From Rhodopirellula europaea 6C (lineage in GTDB: Bacteria; Planctomycetota; Planctomycetia; Pirellulales; Pirellulaceae), in assembly GCF_000338295.1 (NCBI RefSeq), contig NZ_ANMO01000216.1:186001-250000 (forward strand): 64,000 bases of DNA, given 5' to 3'. Shown one piece after another: positions 6,087 to 53,899 of the stretch (position 1 is the first letter of the stretch; each line of letters starts with the position of its first letter). The notes under the pieces were generated by a model that did not search any database, was not told the DNA's origin, and saw only the letters and a list, made by a program, of their open reading frames with translations. The position numbers were made by a program, and so were the translations under genes.

Positions 6087-6443
6087 GGATGCGAGTCTCC
6101 TAAAGACTTTTTGGTGCCCTTGGCGGTCTTGCCAGAGCAAAGAATGAAACTGTCAGACAAACGGTTCTACCCAACCGCAGCAATGAAAAATGAACCAGCG
6201 TGATTCACTTCGATGCAGCCAACGGCCCTTAAAATACCCGAATTGACACGGATTACCAATGCTCAGAAAGGGAAGAATCTGGGGCGGTACCAAATCCGAA
6301 TGCATTTGGGTTTAATGTTCGCTCTGTTACGAAGCAGCTGAATATGCCAGCTTGGTAAGCATTGCGGGAGCCATGGCGGTCAACGCAATCGTCAATTGCT
6401 TGTCAGGGAAGAATCTTCACCATCGCGTGGGCGAAACGGAATC
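6087..6443. other. Divergent intergenic region between glnII and a membrane protein gene
   Basis: About 360 bases with no coding potential, tRNA or recognisable riboswitch. It should hold the glnII promoter (reading left) and that of the membrane protein gene (reading right). I searched by eye for the sigma-54 TGGCAC-N5-TTGC pattern and found none. Confidence 0.45.
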
Positions 6444-7037
6444 ATGTCCAATACACCAAACGATCCATTTGATCCAAATCGGGCCTATCAAAATCCATTG
6501 ACTCCCGAAGTCGTTGGTGGTCCCGGGGGGCCCGGTGCTCAACCACCGGCCAAGAAAAAATGGCCGATGATTCTCGCAATCGTCTTGGGGCTCGGTTTCG
6601 TCTCGATGCTGATTTGCTGTGGCGTGCTGTGGTTTGCGATGTCAAAAGTCGGCGGTTTGGGTGCCGTTTTCGAACCCGTTCGAGCAGACCTGAACCGAAT
6701 GCCCGAGGTCACCGACGAGATTGGCGAGATCGAGTCGATGTCGATGAACTTTGGCGAAACAGTCAACGAAGCCGAAGAGAATCCCGACTTCATCGTTTTC
6801 GATCTGGAGGGAACCAGCGGTTCCGCCAAAGCAGCGGTGAAAGTGGGACCGGGCGGCGGAGTCGATGAAGCCATCTTGATCTTGCCCGATGGGACTCGCA
6901 AAGAACTCAATGCTTCGAATCCGTCCTCGACAATTCCCGATGGCCTTGGTTCCGACGACGAGCCGATCGATGAGATGACGTTTGAAGACGAAACTGAGCG
7001 AGAACTTCGCGAATTGGAATCGTCGCTCGATTTGTGA
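6444..7037 (+). CDS. Single-pass membrane protein with Pro/Gly-rich N-terminus, unknown function
   Basis: A 197-residue product. Residues 1-38 form a hydrophilic Pro/Gly/Asn-rich tail (MSNTPNDPFDPNRAYQNP... GGPGGPGAQPP AKKK); a single transmembrane segment follows at about 42-66 (PMILAIVLGLGFVSMLICCGV); the C-terminal ~130 residues are soluble and acidic, ending in a Glu-rich tail (EDETERELRELESSLDL). By the positive-inside rule the short tail is cytoplasmic. No domain family recognised. The ATG at 6444 has only a weak GGAA upstream; an upstream start at 6396 is possible. It precedes the cyclophilin gene by 80 bp on the same strand. The N-terminal layout (NDPF-rich tail, basic residues, one TM, soluble domain) resembles that of the product at 61616-62512. 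Confidence 0.78.
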   Translation: MSNTPNDPFDPNRAYQNPLTPEVVGGPGGPGAQPPAKKKWPMILAIVLGLGFVSMLICCGVLWFAMSKVGGLGAVFEPVRADLNRMPEVTDEIGEIESMSMNFGETVNEAEENPDFIVFDLEGTSGSAKAAVKVGPGGGVDEAILILPDGTRKELNASNPSSTIPDGLGSDDEPIDEMTFEDETERELRELESSLDL

Positions 7038-51015: not shown

Positions 51016-52305
51016 TTAGCCGTCGAAGCGACTCAGGCACAGCGTCACGTTTTGGCCGCCAAAGCCAAAGCTGTTGTTCAGTGCGTGCTTGATCTCGGCA
51101 GGACGAGCCTCATTGGGCACGTAGTCCAGATCGCAATCCGGGTCCGGCGTTTCTTGGTTGATTGTCGGTGGCAAAACCGAATCGCGAATCGCCATTAGGC
51201 AGACGATCATCTCCGTCACGCCCGCAGCCGCGATCAGGTGGCCCATCATGCTTTTGGTGCTGCTAACGGGGGTCTGTTCGGCATGCTCGCCAAACACTTC
51301 GCGGCAAGCCTTGGTTTCAACGCGGTCGTTGACTTTGGTGCTGGTGCCGTGAGCGTTGACATAACCGATGTCAGACGGGTTGAGTCCCGCGTCGGCGATT
51401 GCCATTCGCATGGACCCGATACCGCCGTGGCCGTCCGGTGGAATGTCGGTGATGCGATAGGCATCGGCCGTTGTGCCGTAGCCGGCGACTTCGCCGTAGA
51501 TCGTCGCGCCGCGTTTCTTAGCCGATTCGAGTTCTTCCAGCACAACCATGGCGGAGCCTTCGCCCAGCACAAAGCCGTTGCGGCCGGCGTCAAAGGGGCG
51601 GCTGGCTTTGGTTGGATCGTCGTTGCTTTCGCTCAGCGCCGTCAGCAGGTTGAATCCGGTCACGCCGAACGGGTGAATCATGCTGTGGGTTCCGCCCGCC
51701 AACATCGCATCGGCTTCACCGCGACGAATGATTTCGGTGGCTTCGCCAACAGCTTGGCTGCTGGCCGCACATGCGGTGAGGCAGTTGAAGTTAGGGCCTT
51801 GCGCGTTGAAACGAGCGGCGAGGTGAGCCGCGGGCATGTTCGGTTCTTGTTCCAGTTCTTTGGCTGGATCGAGCAGACTCAATCCGGCGGCAATGAACTT
51901 GGTCGGGTCGTAGGTTCCATCGGCAAGTGCCGCGACCATCATTTTGCTGAACGTGTTGAAGTCTTGGTTGCCTTCACCACTGCCCAAATAAACGCCGATC
52001 CGCGTAGGATCCTTGATCGACGACAGAACGCCGCTGTCCTTCATCGCTTGAGTGGCAGCCGCGATCGCGAATTGGGTGTGACGTCCGCGTTGGACGTGTT
52101 TTTCACCGTCTTCAACCGCTTTGGTGATGTCCCAATTTTTGATTTCCGCACTGATGCGAGTGGGGAAACCGCTGGCGTTGAACAGCGTCGTTGGCGCAAC
52201 GCCGCTGCCGCTTTCTTGAAGGCCAGACCAAACGGTGGCGACATCCCAACCCATTGGGTTGATCATACCGATTCCGGTGACGACGACTCGGCGACGCGAC
52301 GACAT
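51016..52305 (-). CDS. fabF: Beta-ketoacyl-ACP synthase II (FabF-type)
   Basis: A 429-residue condensing enzyme that extends acyl-ACP with malonyl-ACP. Catalytic triad: Cys179 (CLTACAASSQAVGEA), His319 (GYVNAHGTSTKVND) and His356 with Lys351 (TKSMMGHLIAAAGVTEM). N-terminal VVVTGIGMINPMGWDVATVW and C-terminal NNSFGFGGQNVTLCLSRF are typical of the KAS I/II family. It begins 6 bp after the stop of the hot-dog dehydratase-like gene and is the last gene of the fabZ-acp-hotdog-fabF set. Whether this is the cell's main or a dedicated elongation system cannot be decided from the window; other fab genes (fabD, fabG, fabH) are absent here. Confidence 0.94.
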   Translation of the reverse strand: MSSRRRVVVTGIGMINPMGWDVATVWSGLQESGSGVAPTTLFNASGFPTRISAEIKNWDITKAVEDGEKHVQRGRHTQFAIAAATQAMKDSGVLSSIKDPTRIGVYLGSGEGNQDFNTFSKMMVAALADGTYDPTKFIAAGLSLLDPAKELEQEPNMPAAHLAARFNAQGPNFNCLTACAASSQAVGEATEIIRRGEADAMLAGGTHSMIHPFGVTGFNLLTALSESNDDPTKASRPFDAGRNGFVLGEGSAMVVLEELESAKKRGATIYGEVAGYGTTADAYRITDIPPDGHGGIGSMRMAIADAGLNPSDIGYVNAHGTSTKVNDRVETKACREVFGEHAEQTPVSSTKSMMGHLIAAAGVTEMIVCLMAIRDSVLPPTINQETPDPDCDLDYVPNEARPAEIKHALNNSFGFGGQNVTLCLSRFDG

Positions 52306-52311
52306 GGACGT

Positions 52312-52818
52312 TTACAGATTTTCGTGAAAGGGAATCGGTTCTCCGTCAGCCGTGACGGCGACGTGAAAGAAGTTCATCATCCGCATCATGGCCAGCAAAT
52401 CGCCAGGATTGAAGAGCGGTCCGTCGATTAAATGGCCTTCCTCGAGGAAGGCAAACATCAAATCAACTTCGGCTTGCAATTCACCATCGCAGTGGCTGGT
52501 ACCGGTGACGGTTGCGCCGCTGTCTTGGGTGCGTTCCAGTTTGACATGGTACTGCAACGAATCGCCAGGTCGCGCCGGTGCATAGTACTTGGCACTGCCG
52601 ACCTTGGCCAAAACGACCCGTTTGGTAAATCCAAATTTCTCGTGCACCAGGATCCCGCCCAGTTGAGCGAGACCCTCGATGATGAGAGTTGGCGGAAGCA
52701 TCGTGTAGCCGAGGCAGTAATCGTCAACGACCTCTTCGTCCAACGCGACGTTCTTCACGCCGGACGCATGAGAACCGCTCACAAATTCGGTGAAGCGATC
52801 CACCCAAAACCATCGCAT
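52312..52818 (-). CDS. FabA/FabZ-like hot-dog protein lacking the catalytic His
   Basis: A 168-residue hot-dog-fold protein. Its first 50 residues align without gaps to the FabZ product encoded 450 bases upstream (M-DRxTE..., ..LxxNEE/LDEE.., D33-x34...E48). In FabZ residue 34 is His in DHFPRFPVMPGVMMLEAL; here the matching segment is DYCLGYTMLPPTLIIEGL, with Tyr34 and the Glu48 retained. The remainder (LGGILVHEKFGFTKRVVLAKVGSAKYYAPARPGDSLQYHVKLERT) keeps the fold signature. It may be a non-catalytic partner, a thioesterase-like or an altered dehydratase. ATG 52818 matches the FabZ start; the product continues 6 bp before fabF. Confidence 0.85.
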   Translation of the reverse strand: MRWFWVDRFTEFVSGSHASGVKNVALDEEVVDDYCLGYTMLPPTLIIEGLAQLGGILVHEKFGFTKRVVLAKVGSAKYYAPARPGDSLQYHVKLERTQDSGATVTGTSHCDGELQAEVDLMFAFLEEGHLIDGPLFNPGDLLAMMRMMNFFHVAVTADGEPIPFHENL

Positions 52819-52849: not shown

Positions 52850-53239
52850 TTACTGGTTGACTTTGCTGTCGACGTAATTGCACAAGTCGCCAACGGTCAA
52901 CAAGTTGCCGAAGTCTTGAACCCGTGGGTTTTCTTGGAATTTCGACAAGTCGGCCCAAGGCATCCGTTTCTTCAGTTCGGCCATTCCGTCGGCGGTGACA
53001 ACACCGTCTTGAACGTATTGGCTGTTCGTCAGAATGTCTTCCGGCGACAATTCTTCGCGAGGGATTTGGATGTCGAAAGCTTTTTCGAGCTTGAACACGA
53101 TGTCCAAGAAGTCGATTGATTCGGCACCGAGATCGCCCACCAAAGTGGCATCGCGAGTGGTTTCGTCGTCATCGACACCCAATGCGTCAACGAGAGCTTC
53201 TTGGACCTTGGTGAAAATTTCGTCTTCTGAGAGCGCCAT
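52850..53239 (-). CDS. Acyl carrier protein with long insertion
   Basis: A 129-residue ACP; standard ACPs have about 75-80 residues. Ser41 in LGAESIDFLDIVFKLE is the 4'-phosphopantetheine site (DSL replaced by ESI). Helices I-III run through residue ~65 (FDIQIPREELSPEDI). The final ACP helix pattern (LTVGDLCNYVDSKV, residues 114-127) appears only after about 45 extra residues (TNSQYVQDGVVTADGMAELKKRMPWADLSKFQENPRVQDF region, 71-110). It is acidic as expected. Located between fabZ and the FabZ-like paralogue, so it is probably the carrier for this fatty-acid module. Confidence 0.92.
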   Translation of the reverse strand: MALSEDEIFTKVQEALVDALGVDDDETTRDATLVGDLGAESIDFLDIVFKLEKAFDIQIPREELSPEDILTNSQYVQDGVVTADGMAELKKRMPWADLSKFQENPRVQDFGNLLTVGDLCNYVDSKVNQ

Positions 53240-53265: not shown

Positions 53266-53799
53266 TCAAACAGAGTGAGGGGTCATGGTCGGCGATATGT
53301 TCTCGCCGGGACGACGCAGGGCCATCGCGGCGGGTGAGTCGCTGAACAAGGAAAAAAATTGCTCGCGAGAGAGTCTTTGAACGTCCGCGTCGGTACCAAG
53401 ATGTTCTGGGTCGCCACTAGAGCAGCTCTCGAGGACCAAGCGAGCCGAAACAGTCGTTCGGTCGCCTTTGCGGGCTTTGGCTTTGACAATCGTCAACGCA
53501 CCGTCGCGTTTGAATATCTCCGCTTCCACTGTCAGCGTCTCACCAGGCGATAAAAAATCACCAAACTTGACGCTTTTGGCTTCGCGAAGAAGTACCAAGG
53601 CAGAATCAAAATCAGGCGACATTCGGATCAACCACACGGCGGCTTGGTGCAATGCTTCGAGCATCATCACGCCGGGCATGACGGGGAACCGCGGGAAATG
53701 GTCGGCTAAGTATTCTTCGTTTGCCGCCAAAGTTCGTTCGCCGACCAAGCGTTGGCCGGGTGTCAGTTCGGTAATTCGGTCGATTTGGCGGTATTTCAT
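53266..53799 (-). CDS. fabZ: 3-hydroxyacyl-ACP dehydratase FabZ
   Basis: A 177-residue hot-dog dehydratase that converts 3-hydroxyacyl-ACP to trans-2-enoyl-ACP. Active-site His34 and Glu48 are in DHFPRFPVMPGVMMLEALHQA, the FabZ signature. The downstream half (LREAKSVKFGDFLSPGETLTVEAEIFKRDGALTIVKAKARKGDRTTVSARLVLE) completes the fold; the last ~50 residues (GTDADVQRLSREQFFSLFSDSPAAMALRRPGENISP) are a C-terminal extension. ATG 53799 gives MKYRQIDRITEL; a longer start at 53850 is possible. First gene of the fabZ-acp-hotdog-fabF set. Confidence 0.93.
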   Translation of the reverse strand: MKYRQIDRITELTPGQRLVGERTLAANEEYLADHFPRFPVMPGVMMLEALHQAAVWLIRMSPDFDSALVLLREAKSVKFGDFLSPGETLTVEAEIFKRDGALTIVKAKARKGDRTTVSARLVLESCSSGDPEHLGTDADVQRLSREQFFSLFSDSPAAMALRRPGENISPTMTPHSV

Positions 53800-53899
53800 G
53801 CCGCGTAACTTAGTACCCCGCCCAAAACGCCTCAACCATAGAATCGGCACAGAATTGCACCGAAGCGGTCGAATTGGGCAAATTCTACCCAGCGGAGGC

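What the first reader, a model, noticed from the sequence alone, without database searches (positions are those of the whole stretch)
52850..53239. Acyl carrier protein with ~45 extra residues before its last helix
Ser41 sits in the normal place and helices I-III are ordinary, but the expected final helix TVGDLCNYV follows only after about 45 extra residues that include KKRMPWADLSKF. ACPs are usually ~75-80 residues long and highly conserved in length, so this suggests a specialised carrier that docks with particular partners, here the adjacent hot-dog protein and KS.
Basis: partly seen in the sequence, partly recalled or inferred. Interest (0 to 1): 0.72.

Follow-up and report, generated by a model that had tools for sequence, protein, structure and literature searches.

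The report
Planctomycete carrier protein with inserted subdomain
The gene encodes a small fatty-acid carrier protein with a conserved 45-residue extra piece, apparently the dedicated carrier of a second, still unassigned lipid-making system shared by many planctomycetes and also seen in gene clusters on Streptomyces plasmids.

Summary
Window 52850-53239 (minus strand) encodes an intact 129-residue ACP with Ser41 in place and about 45 extra residues before helix IV. It is no error: all 41 full-length relatives carry the insert, and pN/pS is like the core's (0.145 against 0.138). It is not the general ACP: an ordinary AcpP passes its cut-off in 30 of 30 long-ACP genomes tested. A strong full-length match occurs in 204 of 393 sampled Planctomycetota genomes, 98 of 99 in the window's class; this undercounts, since one genome below the cut has a diverged inserted ACP. 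AlphaFold draws the insert as ordered.

The steadiest partners are two FabZ-like hot-dog genes flanking the ACP. A ketosynthase pair, KSalpha with a Cys-less KSbeta/CLF-like subunit, lies beside the ACP or elsewhere. Nearly full-length relatives lie on 16 Streptomyces plasmids; all five regions read are type II PKS clusters.

I read it as the dedicated carrier of a separate KS-CLF elongation system, its insert most likely a folded specificity module. Product and docking are untested.

The parts
52850..53239 (-). Long acyl carrier protein, 129 aa (P0001), Ser41 attachment site
   Evidence: PP-binding over residues 11-64 only; 41 of 41 full-length relatives
52904..53041 (-). The inserted segment, residues 67-112, between helix III and helix IV
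   Evidence: alignments A1, A2, A3; AlphaFold helices 67-71, 83-92, 99-103, 107-112 and a short hairpin near 76-81, pLDDT 80-90 by block of ten
53117..53119 (-). Codon of Ser41, expected phosphopantetheine site
   Evidence: invariant in the 41 rows of A2; modification itself not tested
53266..53850 (-). HD1, FabZ-like hot-dog (P0004), upstream of the ACP; a later ATG at 53799 is a possible start
   Evidence: PF07977 E=3.6e-16; His and Glu of FabZ kept
52312..52818 (-). HD2, second FabZ-like hot-dog (within P0002), from the Met at 52818; the longer TTG-start ORF overlaps the ACP
   Evidence: PF07977 E=9.1e-9; His of HFP replaced by Tyr, Glu kept
51016..52305 (-). KSalpha, FabF-like ketosynthase (P0003) with Cys-His-Lys-His intact

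Best explanation
This is the dedicated acyl carrier of a second type II elongation system that runs beside the housekeeping fatty-acid synthase. The system's enzymes are a ketosynthase pair (KSalpha with a Cys-less KSbeta/CLF-like partner), in some genomes a FabG-type reductase in the cassette (13 of 82 loci), and two FabZ-like hot-dog proteins that probably act as a dehydratase pair, in Pirellulaceae with only HD1 keeping the catalytic His. The chain rides on Ser41 of the long ACP through rounds of condensation, ketoreduction and dehydration, ending as a special acyl or polyene-type chain, most likely for the cell envelope. The extra ~45 residues form a small folded subdomain between helices III and IV. 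Its likeliest job is specificity: it gives the carrier a surface that its own hot-dog pair (and KS-CLF) recognise and that keeps it apart from the housekeeping enzymes. Shown by calls here: the conserved insert, the separate AcpP, the gene association, active-site states and KS phylogeny. Inferred: heterodimers, the reaction cycle, the product, and the insert's docking role.
For: Separate AcpP over its family cut-off in 30 of 30 long-ACP genomes, no long-ACP match over it. Insert under purifying selection like the core's and predicted ordered. Hot-dog downstream in 77 of 82 loci and upstream in 64 of 82; of the 5 without a downstream one, 1 is cut by its contig end (L025), 2 are second copies in their genome (L142, L150) and 2 (L138, L146) have an HD2 in front of the KS pair elsewhere. 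KS pair with Cys-less first member in 14 of the 15 loci with two KS and as a detached pair in 7 of 7 genomes checked. Best-scoring KS match to the window KS is 40-47% identical in 12 sampled genomes below the long-ACP cut and 50-62% in 6 above it. Inserted ACPs beside KR, DH, DH and KS genes in three of five Streptomyces plasmid clusters read, beside AcpS and KS genes in the other two; KS1 there groups with planctomycete KSalpha with moderate support (88/89).
Against: No binding, activity or product data. HD2 keeps its His in 33 of the 37 other downstream rows, so a degenerate partner is not general. Two genomes keep the KSalpha without a detectable long ACP (G373 69%, G191 50% with HD2 and KSbeta). 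One of the 12 low-identity genomes, G061, has a diverged inserted ACP beside FabG, FabZ-like and KS genes with a best KS of only 45%, so KSalpha and insert do not coincide perfectly. In Pirellulaceae the KSbeta is not beside the cassette and the two own-genome KSbeta-like genes are long branches. The KS2-KSbeta grouping was 89/88 in one tree and not recovered in a quicker one. 18 of 82 loci have no HD1 upstream, some because the contig is short there.
Confidence: 0.55

Rival explanations
1. AcpXL-like: the protein carries very long chain acyl groups for lipid A, and the insert mainly enlarges or shields the hydrophobic cavity rather than docking with enzymes.
For: Among the 50 fold matches shown (of 356) the one with the highest query-normalised TM-score is RPA2022 of Rhodopseudomonas (2kw2, TMq 0.58); PMC9234698 (passages) names that target family AcpXL and discusses cavity opening. 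The rhizobial order acpXL-fabZXL-fabF2XL-fabF1XL (PMC11901934, passages) resembles ACP-HD2-KSbeta-KSalpha here. Almost all lipid A genes are essential in Planctopirus limnophila (PMC10632474, passages).
Against: It misses the AcpXL family model (43.5 bits against a cut-off of 83). No acyltransferase or alcohol dehydrogenase was among the recurring neighbour clusters that I identified; no dedicated search for them was made. The Streptomyces kin lie in type II PKS clusters of a genus without lipid A (recalled).
Confidence: 0.25
2. A reducing type II polyketide (polyene) carrier: the product is a conjugated polyene or related secondary metabolite, as in aryl polyene and ishigamide pathways, not an envelope fatty acid.
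For: KS-CLF, KR and two dehydratases, with no enoyl reductase recognised in the cassette; the five Streptomyces regions read are type II PKS clusters. PMC8358021 (passages) describes the ApeO-ApeC KS-CLF and a paired dehydratase.
Against: Presence in 98 of 99 sampled genomes of the class fits a core lipid better than a secondary metabolite. The ACP chain of 6kxf (83 aa, called ACP; the ishigamide one by recall) matched only positions 2-67 and has no room for the insert. A housekeeping enoyl reductase could complete saturated chains.
Confidence: 0.25
3. The insertion is a neutral lineage marker of no functional weight in an otherwise ordinary ACP.
For: The insert varies more than helix II (mean pairwise identity 0.44 against 0.90).
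Against: Near-fixed length, invariant G85, near-invariant V76, G79, L89, P94, pN/pS close to the core's, and retention in Streptomyces and in a viral-collection contig.
Confidence: 0.07

Closest known systems
AcpXL, specialised ACP for very long chain fatty acids (RPA2022, PDB 2kw2)
   Same: Extra specialised ACP; chain of 101 residues in the PDB, longer than AcpP; fabZ and two KS genes next to acpXL (PMC11901934, passages); highest query-normalised TM among the 50 matches shown
   Different: Fails the AcpXL model cut-off; insert longer; two hot-dogs instead of one FabZ; one KS of the pair lacks Cys; no lpxXL or adh gene recognised beside it
Reducing type II PKS systems: ishigamide (Iga) and aryl polyene (Ape) clusters
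   Same: KS-CLF pair, KR, dehydratases, free-standing ACP
   Different: The ACP chain of 6kxf has 83 aa without room for the insert; Ape CLF described as half the size of its KS (PMC8358021, passages), here KSbeta is full length; distribution here is nearly class-wide
Uncharacterised type II PKS clusters on Streptomyces plasmids (16 of 72,556 plasmid records hold a nearly full-length relative; 5 regions read)
   Same: Inserted ACP, 31-41% identity over 82-98% of the query; KS1 akin to KSalpha, KS2 with the Cys replaced; KR-DH-KS-DH-KS in 3 of the 5 regions
   Different: Actinomycete; own FabD, a further 787-794 aa KS protein, KSIII; in 2 of the 5 regions no DH or KR is annotated in the stretch shown
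General AcpP of the same genomes
   Same: Helices I-III and the serine site
   Different: 81 aa in the window's genome, in the fabD-fabG-acpP order; over its own family cut-off in 30 of 30 genomes
Anammox ladderane FASII clusters (AmxACP3)
   Same: Specialised ACP in an FASII cluster of a planctomycete (PMC9821293, passages)
   Different: The genome family that I take for anammox (f43, unnamed) shows only ordinary-ACP scores

Membership tests
ACP superfamily (PF00550 PP-binding) | Carrier fold with serine attachment site | tested here: met
   40.2 bits against cut-off 20.8; Ser41 invariant in 41 rows; fold matches ACP structures
General AcpP (TIGR00517) | Score over the equivalog cut-off 70.45 | tested here: not met
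   54.5 bits; no long-ACP place over the cut-off in 30 genomes
AcpXL (NF005079 / PRK06508) | Score over the equivalog cut-off 83 | tested here: not met
   43.5 bits, residues 8-65 only
[quoted passage not shown]
   Needs lipid analysis or acyl-ACP mass spectrometry
KS-CLF type II system | KS pair, one member without the active-site Cys | tested here: met
   14 of 15 loci with two adjacent KS, 7 of 7 detached pairs; in the window's own genome the two Cys-less homologues are on other contigs, so met there only at genome level
KS-CLF type II system | KSalpha and KSbeta form a heterodimer | not testable with these tools
   No complex modelling offered
FabZ dehydratase pair | Catalytic His and Glu | tested here: inconclusive
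   HD1: His in 64 of 64, Glu in 58 of 64 (Gln in 6); HD2: Tyr for His in 40 Pirellulaceae-type rows, His in 33 of the 37 others
Holo-ACP | Phosphopantetheinylation of Ser41 | not tested
   Needs expression and mass spectrometry

The most novel reading that the evidence does not exclude
Planctomycetes of the window's class and many of other classes share an ancient, near-core KS-CLF synthase of an unknown envelope lipid. Its carrier defines a new ACP subfamily whose inserted subdomain is a portable orthogonality module, shared with type II PKS clusters on Streptomyces plasmids and apparently captured by a very large phage.
Probability: 0.35. Interest if true: 0.78.

Novelty: new variant of a known kind. 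Interest (0 to 1): 0.6.

Why it matters
ACPs are strongly conserved in length, so a folded 45-residue insert kept in about half of the sampled genomes of a phylum, and shared with actinomycete PKS clusters, offers a natural example of how a carrier may be kept private to one pathway. If the reading is right, planctomycetes of this class make an uncharacterised lipid with a dedicated, nearly universal enzyme set, which can be tested directly by deletion and lipid analysis; the insert could also serve as a building block for orthogonal carriers.

Tried and rejected
Sequencing error or frameshift: rejected. General planctomycete ACP: rejected. Membership in AcpXL: rejected by score. Neighbour lists from longest ORFs picked antisense ORFs in many loci; replaced by profile searches of stop-to-stop ORFs. 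The C-terminal 70 residues alone found nothing in plasmids or phages; the whole protein did find the Streptomyces relatives. The upstream ABC ATPase and 821-aa gene were considered as operon members; they did not recur beside the hot-dog gene of the relatives, so I left them out. Sinorhizobium, Photobacterium and S. clavuligerus partial hits were fetched but not analysed further. The Bacteroidales-type loci L053-L091 match residues 6-80 at most; dropped before the counts. Literature: nine searches of open-licence PMC papers; in the titles and abstract beginnings listed I saw no description of this insert; one search returned no paper, one search was limited to 2022 on. Subscription papers are mostly not held. 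Of eleven papers I saw passages only.

The count 204 of 393 was read by hand (long forms 6.8e-28 or better, the rest 7.4e-15 or worse, 11 with no match) and counted. It is a lower bound for inserted ACPs: G061, counted as without, has a diverged one; the other weak matches were not opened. The 82 loci include near-identical relatives and are not independent; several end near the ACP. Outside Planctomycetota only 3 genomes behind Bacteroidales loci, the plasmid, phage and viral collections, and the one capped genome-contig scan were searched. The second structure job was not used, so HD1, HD2 and KS were not modelled.

Full report
WHAT IS THERE. The gene lies on the minus strand at 52850-53239 and encodes 129 residues. 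The only Pfam domain found, PP-binding, covers residues 11-64; helix IV resumes near residue 115. The same genome has a general AcpP of 81 residues in a fabD-fabG-acpP setting, another ACP beside a KS on contig C80, and ACP domains in large open frames. Rhodopirellula baltica also has an annotated 81-residue acpP, RB318 (PMC2754498, passages). The long form is therefore an additional, separate carrier.

IS THE INSERT REAL. One scan of genome contigs kept the best 80 of 129 loci, of which 41 match over nearly the whole protein, all from planctomycete records, at 69-92% identity. All 41 translate to one open frame with the insert. A profile search of 393 Planctomycetota genomes (at least 90% complete asked for) gave a two-humped result: 204 genomes have a full-length-type score (E of 6.8e-28 or better), 189 have only weaker matches (7.4e-15 or worse) or none (counted). 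The window's own class has 98 of 99, other classes 106 of 294. The weak group is not free of inserts: the one weak match I opened, in G061, is an ACP with a diverged insert beside FabG, FabZ-like and KS genes, so 204 is a lower bound. I fetched 40 regions from 38 genomes and aligned those ACPs with the window's (A2). Mean pairwise identity is 0.90 in helix II, 0.65 in helix I, 0.51 in helix IV and 0.44 in the insert; the insert's length varies by at most 3 residues, and V76, G79, G85, L89 and P94 are each kept in 39 or more of 41 rows. In 14 comparisons of the window with relatives pN/pS is 0.145 in the insert and 0.138 in the core.

STRUCTURE. AlphaFold2 with the 18-row alignment A1 gives pLDDT 86 and pTM 0.73, with no block of ten residues under 80. 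The insert is drawn as a short helix, a small hairpin and three further short helices before helix IV. Foldseek against the PDB finds ordinary ACPs first (E 4e-4); in several rows the alignment spans the insert to pick up helix IV. Among the 50 rows shown of 356 the highest query-normalised TM-score (0.58) is that of the specialised ACP RPA2022, 2kw2. In the PDB sequence searches the best stretches of the 60 chains shown (of 75 and 86) end by residue 80.

NEIGHBOURS. In the window the order on the minus strand is HD1 (FabZ-like) - ACP - HD2 (FabZ-like) - KSalpha, with gaps of 26, 31 (from the Met at 52818) and 6 bases (coordinates). Over 82 loci (41, 40 regions, the window) a hot-dog gene lies downstream on the same strand within 2.5 kb in 77 and upstream within 4 kb in 64. 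The five without a downstream gene are a truncated contig (L025), two second copies (L142, L150), and two (L138, L146) whose genomes carry an HD2 in front of the KS pair elsewhere. The 18 without an upstream one are 16 Pirellula-type loci, some with short upstream sequence, and the two second copies. A FabG-type reductase is on the ACP's strand nearby in 13 of 82 loci. So HD1-ACP-HD2 is the steadiest unit; KS adjacency is common but not universal.

THE KETOSYNTHASES. Every KSalpha read keeps Cys and both His. In 15 loci a second KS precedes it; in 14 of these its active-site Cys is Asp or Glu (the exception is L148). 19 of the 82 loci gave no KS over 330 residues, some because the contig ends. 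In 7 of 7 genomes from this group that I checked, an adjacent pair lies elsewhere, and all 7 first members lack the Cys. In the window's genome the KSbeta clade contains two stand-alone genes on contigs C246 and C119 (support 100/98, long branches), both without Cys. KS identity mostly separates genomes: 40-47% for the best-scoring match in 12 genomes below the long-ACP cut, 50-62% in 6 above it. Exceptions: G373 has a 69% KS and G191 has HD2-KSbeta-KSalpha, but neither shows a long ACP; G061 has an inserted ACP with a best KS of 45%.

DEHYDRATASES. HD1 keeps the FabZ His in 64 of 64 rows. HD2 has Tyr in its place in all 40 Pirellulaceae-type rows, window included, and His in 33 of the 37 other rows. 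A catalytic and a helper subunit would explain the Pirellulaceae form, but this is inference.

BEYOND THE PHYLUM. tblastn of the whole protein against 72,556 plasmid records gave 70 records with a match, of which 16 Streptomyces plasmids are covered nearly end to end; a second query gave the same 16. Five regions were read: the ACP follows fabD in all five, then come KR-DH-KS-DH-KS in three and AcpS-KS-KS in two, followed in all five by a further KS protein of about 790 residues (two KS halves in the two that I translated) and a KSIII gene. Alignment A3 shows the insert in two of these ACPs, the translations show it in the other three. KS1 has the Cys and groups with planctomycete KSalpha (88/89, moderate); KS2 has the Cys replaced and groups with KSbeta at 89/88 in the careful tree but not in a quick one. 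In the three clusters with two DH genes, the DH next to KR lacks the HFP motif and the other keeps it. A 390-kb contig of the viral collection also encodes an inserted ACP at 41% identity. Of 15 annotated-phage records with a match, none was covered to 80%.

HOW IT MOST LIKELY WORKS. Established knowledge of type II systems: the chain sits on the phosphopantetheine of the ACP serine and visits KS-CLF, KR and DH in turn. Here a private set exists except for starter loading and enoyl reduction, which may come from the housekeeping enzymes. The insert sits between helix III and helix IV, and the ACP is kept next to the two hot-dogs more faithfully than next to the KS. I therefore favour a specificity module for the hot-dog pair and KS-CLF (inferred). 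A chain-sheltering role like that discussed for AcpXL is the main rival.

COMPARISON WITH THE KNOWN. AcpXL clusters (acpXL-fabZXL-fabF2XL-fabF1XL-adhlA2XL-lpxXL; PMC11901934, passages) resemble it in plan, but the AcpXL model is missed (43.5 against 83 bits). Reducing type II PKS systems resemble it in enzyme kinds (PMC8358021, passages), but the ACP chain of 6kxf has 83 residues. None of the 18 NCBIfam models listed reaches beyond residue 74, so no model there covers the insert. One generic ACP subfamily model (NF002150) is over its cut-off (69.2 against 66). Verdict: a new variant of a known kind.

Noticed in passing
L162:4001-4393 (IMGVR_UViG_3300036766_002289, 390 kb): A very large contig of the viral collection encodes a 130-aa ACP with the same insert, beside a DNA methyltransferase-like ORF; I recognised no FabZ or KS among the listed ORFs of the 8 kb held.
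   Followed up: partly
Own genome C246:66506 (L179) and C119:52082 (L182): Two stand-alone Cys-less KS homologues fall inside the KSbeta clade of the cassette, far from the ACP.
   Followed up: partly
L258 (G061:C136:9500-19500), ACP at 6102-6794 minus: A genome counted as lacking the long ACP has a diverged inserted ACP in a cluster with two FabG-like, two FabZ-like and three KS-like frames; the family is wider than the cut shows.
   Followed up: partly
L166 15572-17956, L168 14811-17174: Streptomyces plasmid PKS clusters carry a KS-KS fusion protein of 787-794 aa, the second half apparently without the Cys.
   Followed up: no
L150 (G180:C105): A second copy of the long ACP lies alone, next to a 1188-aa ORF whose start resembles a transporter of the acyltransferase/acyl-ACP synthetase fusion type (recalled resemblance).
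   Followed up: no
L011 (own genome C80:51877): Another ACP, without this insert by its translation, next to a different KS.
   Followed up: no
G191:C1:362433-365040, G373:C168: KSalpha (and in G191 HD2 and KSbeta) kept without a detectable long ACP; G191 is a single contig, so a real loss or replacement is possible.
   Followed up: partly
L249 8087-8638, L250 8510-9118: Between KSbeta and KSalpha of two genomes sits a gene whose product resembles the GxxExxY family (recalled name), an unusual guest in a KS pair.
   Followed up: no
PDB 9s5h/9s5i chains B and C: Two different 3-oxoacyl-ACP synthase chains in one entry match the window KS (4e-87 and 1.5e-66), perhaps a solved KS pair; organism not seen.
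   Followed up: no
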